Source: Marinobacter sp. SS13-12 (GTDB taxonomy: Bacteria; Pseudomonadota; Gammaproteobacteria; Pseudomonadales; Oleiphilaceae). Taken from it: 64,000 nucleotides of DNA. The notes under the pieces were generated by a model. It was not told where the DNA came from and did not search any database. It worked only from the letters and a program-made list of their open reading frames with translations. Position 1 is the stretch's first letter. Every line of letters starts with the position of its first letter. The position numbers were made by a program, and so were the translations under genes. Where the stretch lies: positions 1,550,001 to 1,614,000 of the forward strand of contig NZ_JASSUA010000001.1 of assembly GCF_030227115.1 (NCBI RefSeq), written 5' to 3'. Positions 46,875 to 57,986 of the stretch are shown piece by piece.

Positions 46875-47363
46875 ATGGAACTGGAACTGAGACATTCATA
46901 CGATGCTGGCCTGGAGCGGGTGCTGGGCGCCTTCTTCGACGAAGCCCACATCCACGAGAAAAACCAGCGACTGGGTTCCCGTAACGTGCGGGTACCGGAA
47001 CTGAGCCGCGATGAGCTATCGGCAAAGGTTGTGGTGGAACGGGAAATGATGGCCTCAACCGAGGTGCCCGGTATTCTCTCCAGCTTTCACCGGGAGTGGA
47101 ACCGGGTGCGACAGGAAGAGCACTGGTTCCGCAAGGACGACGGCGAATGGCATTGCGAATTCCGGGTACGGATCGAGGGCGTGCCGGCAAAAATCAAGGG
47201 CAACATGCGACTTCAGGGCACAGACCAGGCCTGCATCAACTACGTCACGCTGAATGTCTTGTGCGAAGTGCCACTGCTGGGCAAAAAGATTGCCCGGTTT
47301 CTGGCGGATGATTCCCATACCAAGATCGAGAAGGAATACAGGATTACCCGCCAGTTGTTATGA
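46875..47363 (+). CDS. DUF2505 family protein
   Basis: A 162-residue protein of the DUF2505 family, which has a START/SRPBCC-like lipid-cavity fold. It begins MELELRHSYDAGLERVLGAF and ends with a helix carrying DDSHTKIEKEY. No catalytic residues are evident and the function is unknown. The start follows GGAGGC. It is divergent from bioA and overlaps the end of hsdR by six bases; it marks the left border of the restriction locus. Confidence 0.82.
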   Translation: MELELRHSYDAGLERVLGAFFDEAHIHEKNQRLGSRNVRVPELSRDELSAKVVVEREMMASTEVPGILSSFHREWNRVRQEEHWFRKDDGEWHCEFRVRIEGVPAKIKGNMRLQGTDQACINYVTLNVLCEVPLLGKKIARFLADDSHTKIEKEYRITRQLL

Positions 47364-50300
47364 GGCGGTGGGCCGGTACTTCTTGAAATTTTCTGCCTGT
47401 TCGAAAATTTCTTTGTAGACCTCATCCCGGTCAATGGGTGGGTAGCCATGCTTCCCCAACAGCAGGATGAGGTCCACCTTCAGTTCTGCCTTGATATCCT
47501 CGCGTCGGTTCCAGTCGGTATACTTCACCTTATCATCCACCACGGCTTTCACTGCCTCGGAAAGCGGGAGGAGCTTCTTTTCGGGATAAGTGAAGTCATA
47601 CTTGGTCGCCAGGTCTTTCAGGATGTCGTAAAAGGCTTTGACTTCCAGATCGATTCCCAGCTCCTCAAAGGAGCCAACTTCATGTTTCAGTGACTGGATC
47701 ATTCCCATGTAGCGGTCGATAATCTCGTCGGTGAAATCTTCAACTACTTCGCCTCGCAGAACATCCGCTTCCTTTCGTTCATTGTATTTTTCTACCAGCG
47801 CCTGAAGCTGCTTCGAGAAGTCTACACCACGGGCTTTGTTGACCCTTTTGAAGTCCTCGATCGCTTTGGCGAGAAGCTGTTGGAGAAGTTTGATCTTGGT
47901 ATTGGGAAGTTTGATTTTCTCGATTTTGGCCAGATAGTCATCGTCGAAAATGTTTCGTGCTTCGGCACCATCTTCGCCAAGCTTGAAAATTTCCTCCACG
48001 CCGTCGGCGTTCAGGGCCTCCGTCATCATCTCCCGCACCCGAGCGTTCATCTGGGCGGTGTCCGGGGCATGGCCGCGAGTCAGTTTGAAAACGATGGAGC
48101 GAACGGCCAGATAAAAGTGAATCTGGTCCCGCTCGATCTGGGTCACACCCTCTGAACCACTGCAAATGTCATAAGCCGCTTTCAGGCGTTTTACCAACGC
48201 CATAAACCGTTTCTCGATCTTGTCCGTGAGTTGGGCGTACTCGGCGGCCCGGTTCAGACAATTCAGCTGGTGTACCGGGCTGCCCTGGAAATAAAGGCGG
48301 TCATCAAACTTGTGAAACAGTTTGCCGAGTAGATCCAGGTGGTCTTTGACTACAATGATCGACTGCTCGATTTCCTCGATGTTTTGCTGGTCGGCTTTGT
48401 TGTAGTGGGCCAGTGCCAGGTTCATCTGCTTCTTGATGCCGATGTAGTCCACCACCAGGCCTTTGCGCTTGCCTTCAAATTTTCGGTTGACCCGGGAGAT
48501 GGTCTGAATCAGGTTATGGCGCTGAATGGGTTTATCAATGTAGAGGGTGTCCAGAAAAGGCACATCAAAGCCGGTGAGCCACATATCCACCACAATAGCG
48601 ATCTTGAAGTTGGATTTTGAACTTTTGAACTGGCGGTCCAGCTCCTTGCGATCGTCCTGAGTGCCTAGCAAGTTCCAGAGTGTCTTGGGATCATCTTTGC
48701 CCCGGGTCATGATCAATTTGACCCTTTCCATGGGCTTGATTTCTTTCCGGTCCTTGTCTGACAGATCGGCACCGGGTTCGCAGACCAGAACTTCGTTCCA
48801 CTGTGGTCGAAGCGCGATCAGTTCCTGCCATAAGTTGTAAGCTATATTACGATTGCTGCACACGAACATTGCTTTACCTTTGACGGTAGCCCCTTCCTCT
48901 ACCCGCTGTTCGTAGTGATGAACAAAGTCCTTTGCCAGCGTACGTAGCCGATCCGGATCGCCCAGGATCACGCTCATGTTGGCGCTGGCTTTTTTGCTCT
49001 CCTCAATCTGGTACTCGCTGGCTCCGTCCTCAGCGCACTGCTCGTAGTAAGCCTCTATTTCCTGGAGCTTTTCGTTGTCCAGGATCACCTTGGCGGCCCG
49101 GCCTTCGTAAACGATAGGTACAGTAATCTCGTCCTTCACCGATTCTGTCATGGTGTAGCTGTCCACCACCTTACCGAAAACATCCAAGGTGGCGTCTATG
49201 GGGGTACCTGTGAAACCGACATACGTGGCATTGGGCAGTGAATCGTGTAGGTATTTCGCAAAACCGAAGCTGCGCTTCACGCCGCTTTCAGTAACCCGGA
49301 TTTTCTGGTCCAGGTTCACCTGGCTTCGATGTGCTTCATCAGAGATGCAGATCACGTTGGAGCGATCCGTCAGGAGTTCGGTGTCTTCGGTGAACTTGTG
49401 GATGGTGGTTAAAAAGACCCCGCCGCTGGTTCGCCCCTTTAGTAGTTCACGCAAATGACTACGGCTCTCCACGCTGATTACCGTTTGGTCGCCAATGTAC
49501 TCCTTGGCATTGGTGAACTGGCCGGAGAGCTGGTCGTCAAGATCTGTTCTGTCCGTAATCAAAACAATCGTGGGGCTTTCAAAATCCACGCTTTTCATGA
49601 GCAGGCGGGTGAGAAACAGCATGGTGAAACTCTTGCCGCAGCCGGTCGCCCCGAAGTAGGTGCCACCTTTACCGTCGCCTTTGGGCCTTCGGTGTTTCAG
49701 AATGTTTTTGAACAGCTTGCCGGCGGCGTAGAACTGTGGGTATCGGCAAACAATTTTCTCTTCCCGATGGGACTTGTCGGGGAAATAGATGAAATGTCGG
49801 ATGACTTCCCGCAGTCGGTTGTGGTCGAACAACCCCTGAATCATCGTGTGCAGGGCGTTGATGCCATCCTGTTCGATGGTCTCGTCACCGGTGACCTTGC
49901 GCCAGGTATAAAAGTATTCGTAAGGCGCAAACAGTGAGCCCAAACGGGAATTCACACCATCACTAATCACGCACAGGGCGTTGTACTTCATCAGTTCTGG
50001 AATATCACGAGCGTAGCGAATGGTGAGTTGCTTCCAGGCATCGTAAATGGTGGCGTTCTCACGAGTGGCGCTTTTGAACTCGAAAACCACCAACGGCAGG
50101 CCATTGATGTAGAGAATCGAATCGGGAATCCGCTTTTCGAGTCCCTCGATCTCCAACTGATTGACCACCCGGTAGATATTGCCGCCAGTATGGTAGTCCT
50201 CTCCATCATCGGCGATGACGGTATCCACTTCTCCCGATTCGGGCTCCCGTAGCTCTGGAAGCCCGGAATAGTCCAACAGTTGGATGTAAAGGTCCTTTTG

Positions 50301-50597
50301 GGAGTGGTCCTCTCGTTTCAGAAGAAAACCATCAGCTACCCATTTGTGGACGGTCTTGTTGGAGGCGTATAGATCGGAGGCGGAAAGGGTGTCCAGTCGA
50401 TTGATGATCGTGTCAACTTCATGAGCGGTAATGTTGTCATTGGCATACCGCCGCGCCAGGAACGTCTTTAGATCATCCCGGATCAGAACGTCGTCTGGCG
50501 ACCTGGAAAGGGAGGGGCCGGGGGTGTGAGGAAATCCCTGCTCACCCAGCAGGGCGATGATCGCCTGTTCCAGTTTGTCCTCGGTGAACTTGGGCAT
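47358..50597 (-). CDS. hsdR: Type I restriction enzyme R subunit HsdR
   Basis: HsdR is the translocating and cutting subunit of a type I restriction complex. The 1,079-residue protein has an N-terminal PD-(D/E)xK-type nuclease domain (VFEFKSAT near residue 170), then SF2 helicase motifs including GATGCGKSFTM and DEAHRSQ, and a C-terminal helical region that binds the methylase. A good AAGGATAGGGA site precedes the ATG. It is separated from hsdM and hsdS by about 7.5 kb of cargo. Confidence 0.96.
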   Translation of the reverse strand: MPKFTEDKLEQAIIALLGEQGFPHTPGPSLSRSPDDVLIRDDLKTFLARRYANDNITAHEVDTIINRLDTLSASDLYASNKTVHKWVADGFLLKREDHSQKDLYIQLLDYSGLPELREPESGEVDTVIADDGEDYHTGGNIYRVVNQLEIEGLEKRIPDSILYINGLPLVVFEFKSATRENATIYDAWKQLTIRYARDIPELMKYNALCVISDGVNSRLGSLFAPYEYFYTWRKVTGDETIEQDGINALHTMIQGLFDHNRLREVIRHFIYFPDKSHREEKIVCRYPQFYAAGKLFKNILKHRRPKGDGKGGTYFGATGCGKSFTMLFLTRLLMKSVDFESPTIVLITDRTDLDDQLSGQFTNAKEYIGDQTVISVESRSHLRELLKGRTSGGVFLTTIHKFTEDTELLTDRSNVICISDEAHRSQVNLDQKIRVTESGVKRSFGFAKYLHDSLPNATYVGFTGTPIDATLDVFGKVVDSYTMTESVKDEITVPIVYEGRAAKVILDNEKLQEIEAYYEQCAEDGASEYQIEESKKASANMSVILGDPDRLRTLAKDFVHHYEQRVEEGATVKGKAMFVCSNRNIAYNLWQELIALRPQWNEVLVCEPGADLSDKDRKEIKPMERVKLIMTRGKDDPKTLWNLLGTQDDRKELDRQFKSSKSNFKIAIVVDMWLTGFDVPFLDTLYIDKPIQRHNLIQTISRVNRKFEGKRKGLVVDYIGIKKQMNLALAHYNKADQQNIEEIEQSIIVVKDHLDLLGKLFHKFDDRLYFQGSPVHQLNCLNRAAEYAQLTDKIEKRFMALVKRLKAAYDICSGSEGVTQIERDQIHFYLAVRSIVFKLTRGHAPDTAQMNARVREMMTEALNADGVEEIFKLGEDGAEARNIFDDDYLAKIEKIKLPNTKIKLLQQLLAKAIEDFKRVNKARGVDFSKQLQALVEKYNERKEADVLRGEVVEDFTDEIIDRYMGMIQSLKHEVGSFEELGIDLEVKAFYDILKDLATKYDFTYPEKKLLPLSEAVKAVVDDKVKYTDWNRREDIKAELKVDLILLLGKHGYPPIDRDEVYKEIFEQAENFKKYRPTAS

Positions 50598-50842
50598 TCC
50601 CTATCCTTACTGCGCGATCTGGTGTCCGGGGAGTGGTTTATCCGTAGGGTTTATTAGCATGTTACCTGATTGTAGCCATTTTTTGCCCACCTGACGGTGT
50701 CACATTGTGAAATCGGGTAATTTGGCCAACGAATAGCTTGCGTATAAGATACGTTCAAGCCTTTTAGGAGTTGGGATGCTTCTGATAGTGCATTGCAAAT
50801 GGTTTAGCGCGAATAGCGCAGTTATAGACAAGGACGTCAGAT

Positions 50843-51649
50843 ATGTCATCACAAACCCGAAGCGGCGATTGGGTAAAACGCGGTAGGAAATCAGCCTCGC
50901 TGGATCGCCTCGAAGCCTATTTCACTGGCAATGGTTATACCCCCCATCGCCACGACACTTATGCCATCGGCCATACACTCTCCGGCGTTCACAATTTCCG
51001 TTATCGCGGAAGTCTGCGTAATAGTCTTCCGGGCGGAACGATTGCCATCTATCCCGACGAGTTGCACGACGGAGAGGCGGGTACGGATGAAGGCTTCCGA
51101 TACAGAATAATGTACGTTGAACCGGCCTTGCTTCACGAGGTTCTGGGCGGCAGGCCATTACCTTATATCCCTGGTGGGCTTTCTCAGGACCCCCGTTTAA
51201 TGGCCGCATCCAGAGCGCTTCTTCAGGATATGGATCAGCCCTTGGATCACCTGGAGGAGGCAGACTCAATATACGACCTGGCGCAAGCGTTGGCTGCAGC
51301 CGCCGGTAATCCAACGAAACGCAAGAAGCTGGACGTTCTCGCTGCTCAACGGGCTCGAGAGTTTATGCACGCCTCATTAGACGCAATGATCACAATGGAT
51401 GAACTCGAGGCTGTTACTGGCCGAGATCGATGGGGGCTTTCCAGGGATTTCCGCAGCCTTTTTGGCACAAGTCCCTATCGCTACCTAACGATGCGCAGGC
51501 TCGATAGAGCCCGCGAACTGATGCAGTGTGGTTCATCGCTTGCAGAGGTTGCCGTGATGGTCGGCTTCAGTGATCAGAGTCATCTTACCAACCACTTCAC
51601 ACGGGCCTACGGTATAACCCCGGCCCGATGGCTCAGAATGCTTCGCTGA
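50843..51649 (+). CDS. AraC-family regulator beside the peptide and AzlCD genes
   Basis: A 268-residue regulator with an N-terminal cupin-like effector domain (about residues 25-110, with PHRHDTYAIGHTLSG) and a C-terminal AraC DNA-binding domain (LAEVAVMVGFSDQSHLTNHF then GITPARWLRM). AraC regulators of this type often stand next to azlCD pairs. Here the peptide, maturase and dioxygenase genes lie between the two, all on the plus strand, so control of the whole set is likely but inferred. The inducer is unknown. Confidence 0.88.
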   Translation: MSSQTRSGDWVKRGRKSASLDRLEAYFTGNGYTPHRHDTYAIGHTLSGVHNFRYRGSLRNSLPGGTIAIYPDELHDGEAGTDEGFRYRIMYVEPALLHEVLGGRPLPYIPGGLSQDPRLMAASRALLQDMDQPLDHLEEADSIYDLAQALAAAAGNPTKRKKLDVLAAQRAREFMHASLDAMITMDELEAVTGRDRWGLSRDFRSLFGTSPYRYLTMRRLDRARELMQCGSSLAEVAVMVGFSDQSHLTNHFTRAYGITPARWLRMLR

Positions 51650-51795
51650 ACCTAGGCGCAATTCTGTGACCCCCTTCTCGTTTAAAAGTCCTTTTCCTGC
51701 ACGATCTTTCAAGATCACGATGCCCACTCACCTCTATGCTGCTATTCAAATAGCCGGATGCCTTTAACTGTCTAAAAATGCATATTTTTGGCCTG

Positions 51796-51853
51796 GCACA
51801 AGGATTTGTGCTCGATCAGAGCGCAAATAAGAGCACGGAGATAACTCTGTGCT
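51796..51853 (+). promoter_or_regulatory. Tandem leader hairpins before the repeat peptide
   Basis: Two inverted repeats lie within 100 bases of the peptide start: GCACAA-GGAT-TTGTGC (51796-51811) and AGCACGGAG-ATAA-CTCTGTGCT (51832-51853, one wobble pair). They would fold in the 5' leader of the transcript or form operators for the AraC-type protein. A further palindrome, AAAAATGCATATTTTT, occurs at about 51774-51789. Function is not established. Confidence 0.5.
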
Positions 51854-51886
51854 TAGTGCAAATCCATAATGAAAAGGAAAGTAACT

Positions 51887-52054
51887 ATGAACCAGAATAT
51901 TTCAACTATCGGTGGAACTGTCGGCGGCACTGTTGGAGGAACAGTGGGTGGCACGGTTGGCGGAACGGTAGGAGGTACCGTTGGTGGAACTGTTGGCGGA
52001 ACAGTTGGGGCTTCCCTTGGCTCAACCAAGTTGAAAACAAAATTGACCAAGTAA
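51887..52054 (+). CDS. Gly-Gly-Thr-Val repeat peptide, candidate RiPP precursor
   Basis: A 55-residue peptide consisting of a short leader-like start (MNQNISTI), eight perfect GGTV repeats (residues 9-40), and a tail GASLGSTKLKTKLTK with four lysines. It has no Cys or aromatic residue. ATG 51887 is preceded by AAGGAAA at a spacing of six bases; the upstream in-frame ATG at 51869 has no site. The synonymous codons differ from repeat to repeat, so the repeat is held at protein level. The radical SAM maturase gene follows 78 bases later with a hairpin in the gap. Precursor status is inferred from size, composition and context. Confidence 0.8.
   Translation: MNQNISTIGGTVGGTVGGTVGGTVGGTVGGTVGGTVGGTVGASLGSTKLKTKLTK
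51911..52006 (+). repeat. Eight in-frame 12-base repeats encoding GGTV
   Basis: Each unit encodes Gly-Gly-Thr-Val, but the bases vary: Thr is encoded by ACT, ACA, ACG and ACC, and Val by GTC, GTT, GTG and GTA across the units. This rules out a recent simple microsatellite expansion and indicates selection on the peptide. Confidence 0.95.
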
Positions 52055-52068
52055 TCCCCATTGATATT

Positions 52069-52098
52069 CGAGGTGGCGTGTGCGAGTGCGCTACCTCG
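52069..52098 (+). promoter_or_regulatory. Hairpin between the precursor peptide and maturase genes
   Basis: A stem with arms CGAGGTGGCG and CGCTACCTCG (one mismatch) encloses a 10-base loop in the 78-base gap. There is no good T run, so full termination is unlikely. Such a stem could protect the short peptide message or reduce read-through, giving more precursor than enzyme, as in many RiPP operons. That role is inference. Confidence 0.55.
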
Positions 52099-52132
52099 TC
52101 ATTTAAAAGTTAGAAATTGGTTAGGTGTTGAT

Positions 52133-53638
52133 ATGGCTGATAGTCGCTACGTGCTTTCAAGTGATCTGATCTTAAACCAGGTAGGTGATCGCTTTGCTGC
52201 CTATCACAGACAGCTCGGTGGGTTATGCTTTTTGGATGGCAATAGTAAGAGCCTACTTGAAAGCTTCTCGACTCCAAGATTTTTATCGAATGATGTGATG
52301 GAAGTGGAAGCAAGTGACCGTTCTGAGGAGTTGATACAGCAATTGATTGCACGGCGGTTGATTGTGAATAAAGAGGAAGAGGCTGAATCTAAAGAAGATG
52401 TGTGGCCTGCCGTTGAAAAGAAAATAAACGTGATCCAGTTAATACTCGCTAATGCGTGCAATTTTGGTTGCACCTATTGTTTTGAAGGTGTCCAGGGAAA
52501 AGAACTCTCCGCAGAGGACGATTTCAATAGAGTCGACGAATCGAGGATAATTGCGAGGGAAGGCATAAAGGTTAATATTGAAGATTCAATTTATGCCTCT
52601 AAAGAGCGCTTTGAACACCAGTATGATCCTAAGAATCGAGCAATGAAGCCTGAAGATGGTGTTTCCTATGTGGAGTCTTCACTGGCAGTAGCGAGATCTG
52701 CTGGCGTAAAAGAGGTGATGGTTCAGTTTTTTGGTGGCGAGCCGCTGTTGAACTGGAGAACTGTCAAGGCAGTCCTTGAGCACTTTGGTAATGGCGAAAA
52801 TCACGACATAATAATAAATTATTCTACGGTTACTAATGGCTCTCTAATAACAAAAGAAGTTTCGGAGACATTCTCGAAATATAATGTCGCTGTTTGCGTG
52901 AGTTTCGATTCCCCAACAAGCCCAAACCGTCCTCTAAAAAACGGAGACGACAGTACCCCTGTTGTAATGGACGGGTTCAAAATGTTGAGAAAATACAACA
53001 ACCGTGTAGCTATCAATTCGGCCTTGACTTCAGACACGTGGAATGACTTCGACGAATCAATCGTGGATCTGGCGGTTGACGTTGGGGCACGTGAAATTGG
53101 AGTCGTTGTAGACTTTGATCCCACATTCTATTCCGAGTTCGGTACGCAAAATATTGTAGACCGCCTTTGGCGGGTAGTTGAGTACGGAAGAACTCGTGGC
53201 GTCGTTCTTACAGGATATTGGCACCAGATCTTCCAGGTGATGCTGGGCTTTGACGTGGTTGCCGACAGAGGATTCAAAAACTGCTCAGCAAAGGGTGCTC
53301 AATTTAGCATTGAGCCAAATGGATCAGTTTTTTCATGTAAGGCGGGTTCCACTCTTCTAGGTAATATATCTGATGAAGAGCGAATTCTGGATTCGGAAGA
53401 GTATCTTAGCCACGCACGGTTGCGGCGTAACAATCCCGAGTTTTGTAAAGGCTGTGAAATTGAAGGGTTCTGCGGTGGGCTTTGCTTGGGGCCTCTGGAA
53501 AAGAAGTACGACGCGGTCGATGTGGTTGAACCTGCTGCCTGTGAGTTTTATAGAGGAATCACCAGAAAGCACATCGAGTCATTGAAGCCGCATGAGATTG
53601 CGACTTTTGATCTTGAAGAAAGGGCAGAGGAGGCCTAA
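52133..53638 (+). CDS. Radical SAM/SPASM peptide maturase
   Basis: A 501-residue radical SAM enzyme. The SAM cluster motif is C109-x3-C113-x2-C116, with GGEP at residues 201-204. The C-terminal SPASM domain has seven Cys (384, 402, 438, 441, 447, 451, 470) including the canonical CX2CX5CX3C, so two auxiliary [4Fe-4S] clusters are expected. The first 85 residues could hold a PqqD-like peptide-recognition fold (LIQQLIARRLIV). About 85 residues separate the Cys motif from GGEP, longer than usual. TTAGGTG supports ATG 52133 over an upstream TTG. AT-rich composition unlike the flanks suggests transfer. The chemistry is unknown. Confidence 0.9.
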   Translation: MADSRYVLSSDLILNQVGDRFAAYHRQLGGLCFLDGNSKSLLESFSTPRFLSNDVMEVEASDRSEELIQQLIARRLIVNKEEEAESKEDVWPAVEKKINVIQLILANACNFGCTYCFEGVQGKELSAEDDFNRVDESRIIAREGIKVNIEDSIYASKERFEHQYDPKNRAMKPEDGVSYVESSLAVARSAGVKEVMVQFFGGEPLLNWRTVKAVLEHFGNGENHDIIINYSTVTNGSLITKEVSETFSKYNVAVCVSFDSPTSPNRPLKNGDDSTPVVMDGFKMLRKYNNRVAINSALTSDTWNDFDESIVDLAVDVGAREIGVVVDFDPTFYSEFGTQNIVDRLWRVVEYGRTRGVVLTGYWHQIFQVMLGFDVVADRGFKNCSAKGAQFSIEPNGSVFSCKAGSTLLGNISDEERILDSEEYLSHARLRRNNPEFCKGCEIEGFCGGLCLGPLEKKYDAVDVVEPAACEFYRGITRKHIESLKPHEIATFDLEERAEEA

Positions 53639-53640
53639 GT

Positions 53641-54378
53641 ATGAATATGTCATTAACCACGACTGACTTGAAGCCTACTAATGAGCAGTATATTGAAAAT
53701 GGATTTTGTGTTGTAGAAACGCCTGCGCTGTCTCATGAAATTATTGCTTCCTTTGATGAGCTTCCCAGAGACTGTCACAGCAAGGGCAGGTTAAGGAAAA
53801 TAAGGTTGTCTCAATATTTCGGATATTTTGAAGATAACGAGTGGATATTCGGGCTGCTCCCAAAAAGGCGGTATATTCAGTCACCCGAATATATAAAGTT
53901 AAAAGAAGCTGGTGGGGTTCTGAGATACAGAGAGCAATTAACTATCGATCCTTTTCCACTGATGTCTTGCATTATGCAGGAGCTACCCATCGATACGGGG
54001 GATATCTTCCATCTGAATGTAAATCAGATTCGCGTCATTGCCAATGAGGAGTATCGCGGAATCACGGTGCCGGAAGGGCCGCATAGAGATGGTCATCAGT
54101 TTAGCGTTATTGGTGTTGCCGCGAGAGAGAACGTGGTAGGGGGTGAGACGCAGGTAATCGATCCCAATACGGGAAATATTGTATTCAGGTATGAGTTAAA
54201 GGAGAACGAAGCCATCATTATTGATGATGAGCGGTATGTTCATTACGCGACAAATATTGAGCCTGAAGAGGGAAGCACCGGCTATCGGGATATCTGGGTT
54301 ATCGAAATCAATAAATGGGAAAATCGAGCTTATGGACCGGTTCATGAGAAAAGGGCAAGGGGCCTAGAGTTATGCTAA
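53641..54378 (+). CDS. 2-oxoglutarate/Fe(II) dioxygenase (PF10014-like)
   Basis: A 245-residue oxygenase resembling the family of bacterial L-isoleucine dioxygenase. The iron ligands appear as H148-x-D150 in EGPHRDGHQF and H201 in RYVHYATNI, with R216 (TGYRDIWVIE) placed to bind 2-oxoglutarate. It starts two bases after the maturase stop, with GAGGAGG inside the maturase end, so the two are co-translated. It could hydroxylate Val or Thr side chains of the repeat peptide, or a free branched-chain amino acid. Which substrate is used cannot be told from sequence. Confidence 0.85.
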   Translation: MNMSLTTTDLKPTNEQYIENGFCVVETPALSHEIIASFDELPRDCHSKGRLRKIRLSQYFGYFEDNEWIFGLLPKRRYIQSPEYIKLKEAGGVLRYREQLTIDPFPLMSCIMQELPIDTGDIFHLNVNQIRVIANEEYRGITVPEGPHRDGHQFSVIGVAARENVVGGETQVIDPNTGNIVFRYELKENEAIIIDDERYVHYATNIEPEEGSTGYRDIWVIEINKWENRAYGPVHEKRARGLELC

Positions 54379-54393
54379 GGAAGTATAGGTTGG

Positions 54394-55116
54394 GTGGAAA
54401 GCGTGAGTGCTAGCTTTGAGGATGCGAAAGGAGCACTGACATCTCCCAGTGCTCTATCCCGGGTAGTGCCACCAGCGCTTGCAGTGGCCCCCGTTAGCAT
54501 GCTGTTCGGTTTTATAGCCTGTCAGGCTGACTGGACTATTTTGGATGTGTTTCTTGTAAGCGTGCTGGGTTTCTCGGGGAGTGGGCAGTTTGCGGTTCTT
54601 CCGCTCTCCCAGTCCGGCTCGGGGTTTCTAACCATGCTCTTTGTTACCGCTTCCATAAACAGCCGGTACTTCCCAATTGCTTACGTGTCCTCTGGTCGGT
54701 TACCGCAAAGGAAGGTGAGCCGATACCTAACGGCTCATATGCTGGGAGACGAAGCCTATGCAACCGAAAGTCCATCGGATGGCCCCCAGACTATTTTTCT
54801 GATCCGGAGCGTCATTTTTATTACATGGGTTCTGTCAGCGTTGGTGGGTGCGGCCCTGGGGCAGTCACTTCAGCTCCCTTGGCTTGGGGATAATGTCAAT
54901 CTGGGGTTTTCAGCCAGCGCAGTGCTGGTATTCCTTTCGGTGAGCCAGCTCAGGTTACGGGTTTTTGTCGATGATGGGTTTACCGTATCCCGGGTAGGTG
55001 CCGTCGTCCTCGGCCTGACCGTTGCTTTAGTGCTGATATACTCGCTGGGGCCGGTCTATTTTTGGGTGCCTGGCATTATCGTGACATCAATCCTGCTCGC
55101 CAAGGCCAGGTTATGA
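54394..55116 (+). CDS. azlC: AzlC-family branched-chain amino acid exporter, large subunit
   Basis: A 240-residue membrane protein of the AzlC family, with about five to six helices and the motif ASINSRYFPIAYVSSGRLP followed by HMLGDEAYA. AzlC works with AzlD to export branched-chain amino acids or their analogues. It starts with GTG 15 bases after the dioxygenase gene and overlaps azlD by four bases. In this context it might export a modified amino acid or short peptide product; that is inference. Confidence 0.9.
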   Translation: MESVSASFEDAKGALTSPSALSRVVPPALAVAPVSMLFGFIACQADWTILDVFLVSVLGFSGSGQFAVLPLSQSGSGFLTMLFVTASINSRYFPIAYVSSGRLPQRKVSRYLTAHMLGDEAYATESPSDGPQTIFLIRSVIFITWVLSALVGAALGQSLQLPWLGDNVNLGFSASAVLVFLSVSQLRLRVFVDDGFTVSRVGAVVLGLTVALVLIYSLGPVYFWVPGIIVTSILLAKARL

Positions 55117-55427
55117 ATAGCGCTGCAATGCTGGCCGTTCTCGCGCTGTTTGCGGCCAGTTTGATCGTTAGAGTTTTACCTGTGCTGCTCCGGTTCGAAC
55201 TTGCCGCACCGTGGAAGGTCTATGTGGAGCAGGCGGTTCCGTCAGCGGTTTTCATTAATTTTATTGTTTATATTTTCTACAGCGAATTGGCCCGGGAGCC
55301 TCTTGCCGCGACAATTTCTCTGGCCCTGGTAGCTACTGTTGCCTTGCTGACGTCAATGGGACTGTTGATTTCGGCGTTGGTTGCTGCTGGCAGTTACTAC
55401 TCGCTTGTCTATTTCATGCCATTTTGA
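55113..55427 (+). CDS. azlD: AzlD-family exporter small subunit
   Basis: A 104-residue protein with about four hydrophobic helices and the AzlD opening LFAASLIVRVLPVLLRFELAA. It is the obligate partner of AzlC and is translationally coupled to it through ATGA. It is the last clear gene of the plus-strand peptide cluster. Confidence 0.9.
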   Translation: MNSAAMLAVLALFAASLIVRVLPVLLRFELAAPWKVYVEQAVPSAVFINFIVYIFYSELAREPLAATISLALVATVALLTSMGLLISALVAAGSYYSLVYFMPF

Positions 55428-55439
55428 GGACGACGAGCC

Positions 55440-55583
55440 TTGCTTAAACTAAATAGGCAAAGGCTCTGGTGTAATACCCCGCCGATTCGGTCAATGTCAG
55501 AGGGCCTGGAAGAGAAGCTGCTTGAACTGTTCAAGAACTATGTCGACAGAAAGTTTTTCACGAAAGGAAAATCTGTGGTCTAG
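55440..55583 (+). other. Short open frame after azlD, possible gene fragment
   Basis: A 47-codon frame from TTG continues in the same frame as azlD after its stop and encodes a peptide with the well-formed helix MSEGLEEKLLELFKNYV and a basic tail. There is no convincing ribosome site before TTG. Its stop overlaps the convergent DUF6933 stop. It may be the remnant C-terminus of a lost gene or simply chance; I cannot assign it. Confidence 0.25.
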
Positions 55584-56131
55584 CATTGTTCCAACAACTC
55601 CAGCATCGCCCGTTTTGGCCAGATACAACCCTTGACTCCCTTCGCAGAACAAGGCCGTTCGGCTAAAAAGGCGCCTGTTCTGTACGGCGCCAGATCGATG
55701 ATCGAGAGGTTGTCATACCAGATCTGATGCTCCAGATCCTGCTTCATCTGGTTCATGGTGGCCTGCACTGAGCGGTCGCATTCCGAGTCGCAAACCAGTT
55801 GCGAGAGTATATTTCCGGCAGTGTTCATTTGCGTCTCATTAGCACCGGATTTAATGAGAGTGTTCATCAGAGCGTCCTGAAACCACCAGTCCAGCTCCGC
55901 AAAGTCCGGTTTCGTGAGGCAAGTTGCCAGCACCGGAAAACGAGTGGTGTCATGAACGAACAACACACAGTTGCGGCGCTGGATGGTGAGCAGGTTGGCG
56001 TGCCAGCCGCTCATAGGGCTCTCAGCTTCATCATTAACTGCTTGCGGGAGCAATGCCTTCCTCTTTATCCGACCGGACGAATCCAGCGGCAGCTTTGCCA
56101 AAAGTTTCTTTGTGCAGTGGAGTTGGATCAT
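55580..56131 (-). CDS. DUF6933-type hypothetical protein
   Basis: A 183-residue soluble protein that begins MIQLHCTKKLLAKLP and has RRNCVLFVHDTTRFPVLATC with DWWFQDALMNTL. I recognise this as the DUF6933 type, of unknown function, often in accessory regions. ATG 56131 is preferred over the GTG at 56149 because family proteins start at MIQLHCTKK. It stands alone on the minus strand between the peptide cluster and the HipA-like pair. Confidence 0.7.
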   Translation of the reverse strand: MIQLHCTKKLLAKLPLDSSGRIKRKALLPQAVNDEAESPMSGWHANLLTIQRRNCVLFVHDTTRFPVLATCLTKPDFAELDWWFQDALMNTLIKSGANETQMNTAGNILSQLVCDSECDRSVQATMNQMKQDLEHQIWYDNLSIIDLAPYRTGAFLAERPCSAKGVKGCIWPKRAMLELLEQC

Positions 56132-56382
56132 AGGTTTCTGGCTTCGCACTCGGCTGACGTCTCACCACCGTCAACTTCGATTTGTGATGAAATGGTAAAA
56201 GATCTAACGTTTCATGCGGTTAAGTGTCTCGGGGTGTCGCTATACGATTAGTGATGAAATACACTTGCCTGAATACCTGCGCTGTTACAAGAAGAGAATA
56301 TGGGATACGGTTGAATCGTTCCACCGTGACCTTCAGTAAGATGTACCCGAGTAATCGTTGAGTAAAAGGGAATTTCATACCT

Positions 56383-57135
56383 GTGCCGAGTTTGCCTCCC
56401 CATGAAGTCGAGATCGTCGAGGTGTTGCGCCGCTCGGAACACGGTATGACTCTGCCGTTCATCTGCAGAGGCAATGATGGAGAGATTTATTTCGTCAAAG
56501 GCAGCGGTGCGGGCAGGCAGAGTCAGATTAACGAATGGATATCTGGCAACCTCGCTCTGGCCATGGGAATTCCCGTAGCCCCATTCAGACTTGTCGATGT
56601 TCCCGACGAGTTAGTCGATGTGTTGTCAGCGGAGGATGCGCTTGCGTTGGGTTGCGGCCCGGCTTTTGGATCGGTGGAACAGAGGATAACGGAGTTGGCT
56701 TTCTCCCAGATTCCTGATGTCCCATCTGAAATGCGTGGCTCTCTCCTTGTTTTCGATTGGTGGATATCCAACGTCGACCGTCAATTGACGAAAAACGGCG
56801 GAAACGCAAATTTATTCTGGGATGCGGAAACTCAGCGCCTTGTGGTCATCGACCACAACCAAGCCTTCGACCCGGATTTCGATCCAGATCATTTTTTCCG
56901 GTACCACGCCTTCAAGGACAGCGTGCCGGTCGCGTTCGATGACTTGATTGAGCGTCAGCACTATACTGATCGGATGGAACAGGCTTTGAGGGAGTGGGAC
57001 AACATAATCCAGGCCATTCCCGAGGAGTGGTCTTATATAGACCCCGAGATGACGATGAAACTGGACTTTGATCCGGATTCATTTCTGAAACACTTGCAGC
57101 GTTTTCGTAGCGACAACTTTTGGAACCGAAAATGA
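56383..57135 (+). CDS. HipA-like kinase-fold protein (HipA_2 type)
   Basis: A 250-residue compact relative of HipA kinases. It has a nucleotide-loop-like segment with Lys (EIYFVKGSGAG), the catalytic-loop-like NVDRQLTKNGGNANLFW, and the metal-binding Asp in LVVIDHNQAF. It is much shorter than HipA (about 440) and has no HipB partner. It starts with GTG and overlaps the next gene by four bases. Pairs of this kinase type with DUF3037 proteins are widespread; substrate and role, possibly defence or toxin-like, are not known. Confidence 0.8.
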   Translation: MPSLPPHEVEIVEVLRRSEHGMTLPFICRGNDGEIYFVKGSGAGRQSQINEWISGNLALAMGIPVAPFRLVDVPDELVDVLSAEDALALGCGPAFGSVEQRITELAFSQIPDVPSEMRGSLLVFDWWISNVDRQLTKNGGNANLFWDAETQRLVVIDHNQAFDPDFDPDHFFRYHAFKDSVPVAFDDLIERQHYTDRMEQALREWDNIIQAIPEEWSYIDPEMTMKLDFDPDSFLKHLQRFRSDNFWNRK

Positions 57136-57986
57136 CCAGGATAGCGTGCCAATACGCCATCGTGCGGTTTATGCCTTATATCGAGACGGGCGAGTTTGCC
57201 AATGTTGGTATTTTGCTGTGGGCGCCGAGAACCCGCTACCTGGGCTTCAAACTGCTTCGGAAAAAACATGCCCGTATCACGCAGTTTTTTGAAGAACTGG
57301 ACCGGGGGTTGTACCTCAAAACCATGGCGAATCTGGATGCTGAGTTGTGCAGAGTGCAGGGCATGCTGAAAGACCAGATCGGCGAGTTTGGTGACAACGA
57401 CCGGGAGTATGGATTTCATAAAGGCCTGTTTCAGGAGCTCATCCGACCCCGTGAAACCATTGTGCGGTTCAGCGAGCAGCGGGCAGTGCTGGCGGAGAAT
57501 CCAGAGCAAACACTGACTGGGCTCTACGAGTATTACGTTGGCAGGAACTTCGTCACCAGAGAATATCAGGAGACGGTTCTCGAGAGAGGCATCAAGAAAC
57601 TCCTGGAACAGCGGGATCTGGCCCGCCGTTTTACCAAACGCCGGATCGAAGATCAGCTTTACGGAGTCACCTTGCCCTTTGTTGAGCAAAAGGGCGATGA
57701 TGCCATCCGGGTGATTAAACCCCTGTTCTTGGGGCAGACCGACTCCACGGCTATCATTGAGCATGGCGGCAAGTGGAAGCTGAAAGTGGATCAGCTCCGC
57801 AAACGCCATCTGCTGAAAGGCCCCGTGTTATTTCCGGTTAAAGGCCCCGAGCGTGGCCAGATTAACGACGTTCGTGTAGAGGCGTTTGAGGAAACCCTTG
57901 CCAACCTGGCTGGCGATGGTATCGAAATAACCCTGCACACCGATAAAAACAGAATTCTCGAGTTTGCCGGATTGCATGGCCAGTAG
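57132..57986 (+). CDS. DUF3037 family protein
   Basis: A 284-residue protein of the DUF3037 type, recognised from YAIVRFMPYIETGEFANVGILLW near the start. The rest is helical and basic, without recognisable catalytic residues. It is translationally coupled to the HipA-like gene and probably works with it. It ends 135 bases before the end of hsdS. Confidence 0.82.
   Translation: MTRIACQYAIVRFMPYIETGEFANVGILLWAPRTRYLGFKLLRKKHARITQFFEELDRGLYLKTMANLDAELCRVQGMLKDQIGEFGDNDREYGFHKGLFQELIRPRETIVRFSEQRAVLAENPEQTLTGLYEYYVGRNFVTREYQETVLERGIKKLLEQRDLARRFTKRRIEDQLYGVTLPFVEQKGDDAIRVIKPLFLGQTDSTAIIEHGGKWKLKVDQLRKRHLLKGPVLFPVKGPERGQINDVRVEAFEETLANLAGDGIEITLHTDKNRILEFAGLHGQ

What the first reader, a model, noticed from the sequence alone, without database searches (positions are those of the whole stretch)
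50843..55427. Candidate new RiPP-type pathway: GGTV-repeat peptide with radical SAM/SPASM enzyme, Fe(II)/2OG dioxygenase and AzlCD exporter
Seen: six plus-strand genes in order, araC, a 55-residue peptide with eight GGTV units, a 501-residue radical SAM enzyme with full SPASM Cys set, a 245-residue H-x-D...H dioxygenase two bases later, azlC and azlD. Known: short peptide plus SPASM enzyme is the hallmark of radical-SAM RiPPs. The peptide has no Cys and no aromatic residue, so it cannot be a sactipeptide, ranthipeptide or aromatic cyclophane. Remaining options include epimerisation, Thr ether links, or links involving Lys. A hydroxylase plus a branched-chain amino acid exporter beside a valine-rich precursor is an unusual pairing. 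Two models are possible: a modified peptide is exported or degraded to a modified amino acid that AzlCD exports, or the dioxygenase-AzlCD part acts on free amino acids and the peptide part was inserted beside it.
Basis: partly seen in the sequence, partly recalled or inferred. Interest (0 to 1): 0.9.

Follow-up and report, generated by a model that had tools for sequence, protein, structure and literature searches.

The report
A tvg cyclopropyl-amino-acid gene cluster
This is a marine-bacterium copy of a gene cluster already known to turn the valines of a repetitive peptide into three-membered rings, and comparison with its relatives suggests that the peptide is a disposable scaffold for making a free unusual amino acid that the cell exports or builds into other compounds.

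Summary
In detail: araC, a 55-aa peptide with eight GGTV units, a radical SAM/SPASM enzyme, a PF10014 Fe(II)/2OG dioxygenase, azlC and azlD lie in order on the plus strand. It is not a new pathway. It is the tvgABCDE cluster of Kostenko et al. 2022 (PMC9062424), whose TvgB from Halomonas anticariensis was shown by MS and NMR to join the two methyl groups of repeat valines, giving cyclopropylglycine. That strain's locus was fetched here (L011): TvgB 74% identical. Nineteen of 21 related loci have TvgB and TvgC homologues, all 19 with the peptide and 16 with azlC. The paper leaves the end product open. Relatives point to a free amino acid. TvgD/E match amino-acid exporter families (AzlC clearly, AzlD weakly), not peptidases. 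One Pseudomonas adds a carbamoyltransferase and a LysE exporter. Two Oxalobacteraceae have, in place of azlCD, a second dioxygenase, threonine deaminase and an NRPS. A distant PF10014 enzyme lies near azlC with no TvgB homologue. I propose that TvgA is a consumable multi-copy scaffold: modify, digest, hydroxylate, export. TvgB's chemistry is known from an orthologue; everything after it is inferred.

The parts
50843..51649 (+). AraC-family regulator, probably of this operon
   Evidence: Pfam AraC_binding 5.7e-25 and HTH_18 3.7e-21. A close homologue lies upstream of tvgA in 12 of 19 relatives and downstream in one, L019. Regulation itself is inferred.
51887..52054 (+). tvgA: 55-aa precursor with eight GGTV (= TVGG) units and C-terminal LKTKLTK
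   Evidence: ORF and Shine-Dalgarno-like AGGAAA; synonymous variation only among repeats; L-x3-L-[ST]-[KR] tail in 19 of 19 peptides compared.
52069..52098 (+). GC-rich hairpin between tvgA and tvgB, possible processing or attenuation element
   Evidence: Window -21.4 kcal/mol, z -2.31. Of 17 intergenic regions folded, 15 have energies of -19.7 or lower, 9 have z at or below -2, six of the 15 have z between -1.2 and -1.9, and L019 and L025 show no hairpin beyond shuffles. Function inferred.
52133..53638 (+). tvgB: radical SAM/SPASM cyclopropylglycine synthase (orthologue)
   Evidence: Pfam Radical_SAM 2e-12, SPASM 1.4e-5; 74% identical to the Litchfieldella (Halomonas) anticariensis enzyme (L011); best solved structure 8vpo, E 4e-116. 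Activity shown for the orthologue in PMC9062424.
53641..54378 (+). tvgC: PF10014 Fe(II)/2-oxoglutarate dioxygenase, predicted hydroxylase
   Evidence: PF10014 1.5e-31; invariant HxD...H; nearest solved chains 8jms and 9dq0, E 5.5e-47 and 1e-46; 18 tvgC rows on one side of a branch, support 96/91.
54394..55116 (+). tvgD = azlC: amino-acid exporter subunit
   Evidence: PF03591 1.3e-23; homologue at the same place in 16 of 19 relatives.
55113..55427 (+). tvgE = azlD: small exporter subunit
   Evidence: PF05437 E 4.1e-4, 20.9 bits, below cut-off 23.7; overlaps azlC by 4 bases; homologues after azlC in relatives.

Best explanation
The locus is a tvg operon. TvgA is a ribosome-made scaffold carrying eight valines in GGTV units. 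TvgB converts these valines, while in the peptide, to cyclopropylglycine (shown for the orthologue, inferred here). The peptide is then digested by housekeeping peptidases, because none of the six operon proteins matches a peptidase family (inferred). TvgC hydroxylates the released cyclopropyl amino acid, or does so on the peptide before digestion (inferred). AzlCD exports the resulting branched-chain amino-acid analogue and so protects the producer (inferred). The product would act as a free amino-acid antimetabolite, or as a building block where other tailoring genes are present.
For: Same gene set and order as tvgABCDE; the experimental strain's locus is L011: TvgB 74%, TvgC 58%, AzlC 55%, AzlD 38% identical. 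TvgD matches Pfam AzlC and TvgE, weakly, AzlD; no peptidase family was hit. AzlCD is an amino-acid exporter that also removes 4-azaleucine (PMC10882977, passages). PF10014 enzymes hydroxylate free Leu, Ile and Thr, and the IDO operon carries an amino-acid exporter (PMC3684760, passages). PF10014 near azlC without a TvgB homologue: L038/L054. L016: tvgABCDE + TauD-like oxygenase + carbamoyltransferase + LysE exporter. L023 and L021: tvgABC + TauD-like oxygenase + threonine deaminase + NRPS, same strand, no azlCD at the site; in L023 followed by an MbtH-like protein (by eye), HlyD and MFS pump proteins and a thioesterase. NRPS adenylation domains load free amino acids (general knowledge), and the second one reads as a valine-type pocket (by hand, code recalled).
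Against: TvgC and TvgDE are not assayed in the paper read; its authors expect TvgC to oxidise the peptide and TvgD/E to hydrolyse and export it. L021 and L023 are of one family, so the NRPS link may be one event; the first adenylation domain of L023 does not read as valine-type, and a valine-type one may simply load valine. The genomes of L021 and L023 each hold one azlC elsewhere, so loss of export is not shown. AzlCD is promiscuous. L025 has the trio with no AzlC in its genome and no NRPS recognised nearby, only a WelO5-like oxygenase. No protease was found, so the release step has no gene.
Confidence: 0.6

Rival explanations
1. Published expectation: TvgC hydroxylates the cyclopropylglycine-bearing peptide, which is cut into small peptide units such as Gly-Gly-Thr-CPG and exported by TvgD/E.
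For: Stated in outline in PMC9062424 (the exact unit is my example); the repeat invites cutting into equal units; TvgB acts on peptide.
Against: TvgD/E are AzlC/AzlD-type and no peptidase family was hit. Apart from the tvg and araC genes, no gene family (ORFs of 90 aa or more) recurs in more than three of the 21 loci (those few were not annotated). Carbamoyltransferase, LysE exporter and NRPS neighbours fit an amino acid better.
Confidence: 0.3
2. The poly-cyclopropylglycine peptide is itself the product, for example a membrane or structural peptide.
For: Long, regular GGTV arrays; no obvious cleavage site between units.
Against: Unit number varies from 4 to 12, which a length-dependent pore should not tolerate; amino-acid exporter and NRPS neighbours.
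Confidence: 0.06
3. The dioxygenase-AzlCD pair works on free branched-chain amino acids and the peptide-rSAM pair is an unrelated insertion.
For: PF10014 near azlC without a TvgB homologue exists (L054); peptide-rSAM without dioxygenase exists (L027).
Against: Trio kept in 19 of 21 loci; tvgC rows on one side of a branch, 96/91; Mantel r 0.84 between rSAM and dioxygenase, 0 of 2000 permutations (not corrected for species kinship); in three loci the trio persists without azlC at the site.
Confidence: 0.04

Closest known systems
tvgABCDE of Halomonas (Litchfieldella) anticariensis DSM 16096, poly-cyclopropylglycine RiPP pathway (PMC9062424; abstract, sections 4, 5, 7, 9, 15 and passages read)
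   Same: Gene order, TVGG-repeat precursor, orthologous TvgB (74%) and TvgC (58%), AzlC/AzlD-type TvgD/E.
   Different: Eight units instead of the eleven counted in L011, and none of the Ser-bearing units of L011; araC counted in here; I read TvgD/E as amino-acid exporter, not peptidase.
TigE-type cyclopropyl synthases (8vpo; the name TigE and its Ile-to-methylcyclopropylglycine activity are recalled, from no call)
   Same: Closest solved structure to TvgB, E 4e-116, with a weaker match of the N-terminal region; 8vpo is among the structures used to check RRE models in PMC12710340 (passage).
   Different: Its precursor and operon were not examined here.
IDO and Hil operons: PF10014 free-amino-acid hydroxylases with RhtA or other exporter (PMC3684760, passages)
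   Same: PF10014 dioxygenase with an amino-acid exporter; product an amino-acid analogue.
   Different: No peptide or radical SAM enzyme in the operons as described in the passages; HilA, HilC and RhtA types are not among the six window proteins.
AMB cluster of Pseudomonas aeruginosa (PMC4357302, abstract and outline)
   Same: Amino-acid antimetabolite made with Fe/2OG oxygenases, NRPS and a LysE-type transporter, a gene mix like that of the L016 and L021/L023 variants.
   Different: No ribosomal precursor in the abstract; no homology tested.

Membership tests
tvg poly-cyclopropylglycine pathway | Precursor with repeating TVGG motif | tested here: met
   Eight GGTV units at 51887-52054.
tvg poly-cyclopropylglycine pathway | TvgB orthologue, radical SAM with SPASM domain | tested here: met
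   74% identity to L011, invariant cluster cysteines; Pfam Radical_SAM and SPASM. L011 is named Litchfieldella anticariensis FP35 = DSM 16096, the strain number given in PMC11002830.
tvg poly-cyclopropylglycine pathway | TvgC Fe/2OG enzyme (IPR018724 in the review; PF10014 here) | tested here: met
   PF10014 1.5e-31; in one group with L011's.
tvg poly-cyclopropylglycine pathway | TvgD and TvgE, two membrane-associated transporter proteins | tested here: met
   AzlC and AzlD homologues at the same place in L011, 55% and 38% identical.
tvg poly-cyclopropylglycine pathway | Val to cyclopropylglycine conversion | not testable with these tools
   Shown only for the orthologue (PMC9062424).
Sactipeptide / ranthipeptide | Cys donor in the precursor | tested here: not met
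   No Cys in window peptide. Of the best 25 of 57 NCBIfam hits shown for the enzyme, only the SPASM domain model TIGR04085 passes its cut-off; PapB scores 94 against 340 bits.
IDO/Hil free-amino-acid hydroxylation operon | PF10014 hydroxylase with exporter, acting on free amino acid | tested here: inconclusive
   PF10014 and AzlC present; HilA, HilC and RhtA types not among the operon proteins; substrate not testable.
AzlCD amino-acid exporter | AzlC (PF03591) | tested here: met
   84.4 bits, cut-off 32.1.
AzlCD amino-acid exporter | AzlD (PF05437) | tested here: inconclusive
   20.9 bits, cut-off 23.7; accepted on position and homologues.
AzlCD amino-acid exporter | Export of an amino acid | not testable with these tools
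   Family property from PMC10882977.

The most novel reading that the evidence does not exclude
TvgA is a consumable, multi-copy ribosomal scaffold for mass-producing a free non-proteinogenic amino acid, hydroxylated cyclopropylglycine, which different bacteria then export as an antimetabolite (AzlCD), decorate by carbamoylation (L016) or feed to a nonribosomal peptide synthetase (L021, L023), so that one repetitive peptide supplies several building blocks to a nonribosomal pathway. In L021/L023 the operon copy of threonine deaminase would be a resistant spare of the enzyme that the product inhibits.
Probability: 0.35. Interest if true: 0.82.

Novelty: new member of a known kind. Interest (0 to 1): 0.45.

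Why it matters
The tvg enzyme chemistry is known but, in the paper read, the end product is not. The comparison turns an open question (peptide, small peptides or free amino acid?) into short tests, questions the reading of TvgD/E as peptidases, and points to L016 and L023 as organisms where the fate of the cyclopropyl residue should be visible. If a ribosomal peptide feeds a free amino acid to an NRPS, two biosynthetic worlds usually kept apart meet in one operon.

Tried and rejected
Sacti-, ranthipeptide and cyclophane readings: no Cys or aromatic residue in the window peptide; among the best 25 of 57 NCBIfam hits no maturase model passes its cut-off. Epimerised beta-helix pore: repeat number varies from 4 to 12. 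Plasmid carriage: no match among 72,556 plasmid records at 1e-60. Promoters and terminators: no more sites than shuffles (6 against 6.1, 4 against 5.1). Literature, all 10 searches used: '2OG-Fe dioxygenase' + AzlC + radical SAM 0 papers; FlmE + radical SAM + SPASM 0; glycine-rich repeat + radical SAM + RiPP + threonine 0; 'GGTV' + 'radical SAM' 0; OhkG only unrelated papers among the 4 listed of 5; one search gave the PF10014 and AzlC papers (15 listed of 32); one search found the tvg paper (20 listed of 24); TvgA/TvgB/TvgC gave that paper and one review as relevant among 20 listed of 27; 9DQ0/8JMS/8VPO gave one RRE paper; cyclopropylglycine with NRPS, antimetabolite, AzlCD and others listed 15 of 118, none of the 15 holding cyclopropylglycine. 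Papers on 8vpo, 8jms and 9dq0 themselves were not found, so later tvg work outside this library may exist. L069 and L070 came from the wrong contig of G614 and were not used. L078 proved to have the contig length of L018 (61824) and was not used.

Rows dropped: L024 (BLAST values equal to L009), L027 and L028 were left out of the peptide count (window + 18 loci). L024, L026 (frame-broken) and L028 were left out of A3; these and L027 out of A4. Of the 19 intergenic regions, 17 were refolded with shuffles (L008 and L012 left out). The PF10014 tree used 24 of 31 non-tvg loci (25 tried, one too short, six not tried) and warned of several long branches.
Full report
What is there. The peptide is best read from ATG 51887, which has AGGAAA upstream; the enzyme from ATG 52133 (501 aa); the dioxygenase starts two bases after the enzyme's stop codon. 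The eight GGTV units differ in codons (3, 3, 4 and 4 codons per position) but never in amino acid, so the repeat is kept as protein.

What it is. A profile of 19 aligned enzymes (window and relatives) matches one solved chain, 8vpo, far above all others (E 4e-116; next 7e-17). I recalled this as TigE, a cyclopropyl synthase; no call confirms that name. Following that lead, a paper search found Kostenko et al. 2022, PMC9062424. I read its abstract, sections 4, 5, 7, 9 and 15 and passages. It describes tvgABCDE from Halomonas anticariensis: TVGG-repeat precursor, radical SAM enzyme, Fe/2OG oxidase and two membrane proteins. TvgB joined the two valine methyls in the repeats of a synthetic peptide, up to three of four in the assay, with loss of 2 Da each, and NMR matched an authentic cyclopropylglycine peptide. 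A review (PMC11002830, passages) gives the strain as DSM 16096. Our locus L011 is Litchfieldella anticariensis FP35 = DSM 16096; its TvgB is 74% and its TvgC 58% identical to the window's. The window is therefore a new member of a published pathway.

Distribution. The search for related loci returned 21 loci in Gamma-, Beta- and Alphaproteobacteria and one actinomycete (classes from the organism names). Nineteen of 21 (L008-L026) have tvgB and tvgC homologues side by side (in L026 both matches are split by frame breaks) and all 19 have a GGTV peptide upstream. AzlC is found in 16 of 19 and missing at the site in L021, L023 and L025; the genomes of L021 and L023 hold one azlC each elsewhere, that of L025 none. 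An AraC homologue is upstream in 12 of 19 and downstream in one. The other two loci: L027 (Actinocrinis) has no tvgC match but an ATP-grasp protein, two radical SAM enzymes and a peptide of alternating GGTI and AGTI units; L028 (Pseudomonas sp. LD120) holds what looks like a decayed remnant of tvgB and of the start of tvgC. By genome sampling the system is rare: strong matches in 3 of 97 genomes around the window, the window's own included, 2 of 294 in the Massilia family, 3 of 298 in the Pseudomonas genus and 3 of 201 in the Halomonas family; each of these last three tallies includes the locus genome used as centre. Among 296 actinomycetes 2 match at 1e-30, the centre included; the other, G854, has two relatives of about 30% identity near a carbamoyltransferase gene.

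Conserved anatomy. Nineteen of 19 peptides compared end in L-x3-L-[ST]-[KR] (L019 has one more residue) and the stretch before the repeat is short, so the tail may be the recognition element; that is inference. Between tvgA and tvgB, 15 of 17 intergenic regions fold at -19.7 kcal/mol or lower; z is at or below -2 in 9 of 17, between -1.2 and -1.9 in six, and L019 and L025 show nothing beyond shuffles. It may set the peptide-to-enzyme ratio. The rSAM and dioxygenase distance matrices correlate (18 rows, r 0.84, 0 of 2000 permutations as high), though common species descent is not corrected for. In a tree of 42 PF10014 proteins the 18 tvgC rows fall on one side of a branch (support 96/91; several long branches warned of; 24 of 31 other loci used). 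In 369 gammaproteobacterial genomes 8 match the tvgC profile at 1e-15; the window's own (7e-132) stands far above the next (8.5e-38), which has no TvgB match beside it.

Why a free amino acid. First, TvgD is Pfam AzlC and TvgE a weak Pfam AzlD match; no peptidase family was hit. AzlCD of Bacillus subtilis exports 4-azaleucine, histidine and probably asparagine (PMC10882977, passages). Second, PF10014 enzymes act on free Leu, Ile and Thr and the IDO operon pairs one with an RhtA-family exporter (PMC3684760, passages). Here, one of the 24 other PF10014 loci (L038) has an azlC homologue; a longer stretch (L054) shows PF10014, a GNAT gene and azlC in a row, and no TvgB homologue; its azlD was not found with the window's azlD. 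The 23 others show no azlC within about 1.5 kb. Third, L016 adds a TauD-like oxygenase, a carbamoyltransferase (PF02543 and PF16861) and a LysE exporter (PF01810) after azlCD, the toolkit of an O-carbamoylated hydroxy amino acid. Fourth, in L023 (Pseudoduganella namucuonensis) tvgABC is followed, with gaps of 95, 16 and 34 bases, by a TauD-like oxygenase, a threonine deaminase and an NRPS (AMP-binding 7e-85), then an MbtH-like protein (named by eye), HlyD and MFS pump proteins and a thioesterase; L021 (Massilia) has the same start, its NRPS broken up by masked stretches. NRPSs load free amino acids. The second adenylation domain's pocket, read by hand from one frame, is D-A-F-W-L-G-G-T-F, close to a valine code that I recall as DAFWIGGTFK; cyclopropylglycine is a valine analogue. 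The first domain's pocket, read the same way, is not valine-like. L025 has a WelO5-like oxygenase (PF22814, 2.8e-19) that by eye keeps an HxD motif, so probably a hydroxylase.

Mechanism proposed. Shown for the orthologue: Val to cyclopropylglycine in TvgA by TvgB. Inferred: digestion by general peptidases, hydroxylation by TvgC on the free amino acid (or earlier on the peptide), export by AzlCD. The authors of PMC9062424 also expect multiple small-molecule products per peptide, but with TvgC acting on the peptide and TvgD/E hydrolysing and exporting; a word search of its main text finds no AzlC, nonribosomal, carbamoyl, branched or 'free amino acid'. The two models are separated by the tests listed.

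Against my reading: nothing downstream of TvgB is assayed; L021 and L023 are of one family and may count as one event; a valine pocket does not prove a cyclopropylglycine substrate; both their genomes keep an azlC elsewhere; L025 has the trio with neither AzlC nor an NRPS seen; no release protease is known.

Genomic setting. The operon sits between a type I restriction hsdR gene (47358-50597) and a DUF6933 gene (55580-56149), with a HipA-like kinase, a DUF3037 protein and an hsdS-type specificity gene beyond. The tvgA-tvgC part has 44-46% G+C against 56.5% for the window. This fits horizontal arrival at a variable site.

Verdict. A real, well-conserved operon; not a new pathway; a new member of a known kind whose relatives give a sharper and testable account of what the pathway is for.

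Noticed in passing
window 50728-55589; L087, L088, L089: The tvg operon fills a variable slot beside a type I restriction gene; two Marinobacter-genus relatives without tvg carry other genes there, including PAAR-motif proteins (PF05488), so the slot seems to exchange cargo.
   Followed up: partly
L021:10309-14407; L023:10345-17489 and L076: tvgABC continues into TauD-like oxygenase, threonine deaminase and NRPS, with MbtH-like protein (by eye), HlyD/MFS pump and thioesterase after it in L076; azlCD absent from the site.
   Followed up: partly
L016:4855-8389: TauD-like oxygenase, carbamoyltransferase and LysE exporter follow tvgABCDE in a Pseudomonas.
   Followed up: partly
L025:8941-9891: A WelO5-like 2OG enzyme (PF22814) directly after tvgC in Rhizorhapis suberifaciens; HxD seems kept by eye, so probably a hydroxylase rather than a halogenase.
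   Followed up: no
L027:4888-9515: Actinocrinis variant: ATP-grasp protein, peptide with alternating GGTI/AGTI units and two radical SAM enzymes, no dioxygenase match; would predict methylcyclopropylglycine if TvgB-like chemistry holds.
   Followed up: partly
L075:2838-11881: Another actinomycete with two diverged relatives of TvgB near a carbamoyltransferase gene (PF02543/PF16861); no GGTV-type peptide recognised.
   Followed up: no
L028:8073-8659: Apparent decayed tvgB/tvgC remnant in Pseudomonas sp. LD120, with flanking genes homologous to those at the P. chlororaphis locus, which suggests loss.
   Followed up: partly
window 55580-57986: DUF6933, HipA-like kinase (HipA_2) and DUF3037 genes next to an hsdS-type gene; the HipA-like gene is found in 8 of 62 genomes of the genus searched, the window's included.
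   Followed up: partly
L077: A large ORF resembling insecticidal toxin-complex/SpvB proteins lies in the wider flank of the Pseudoduganella contig; seen in a listing only.
   Followed up: no
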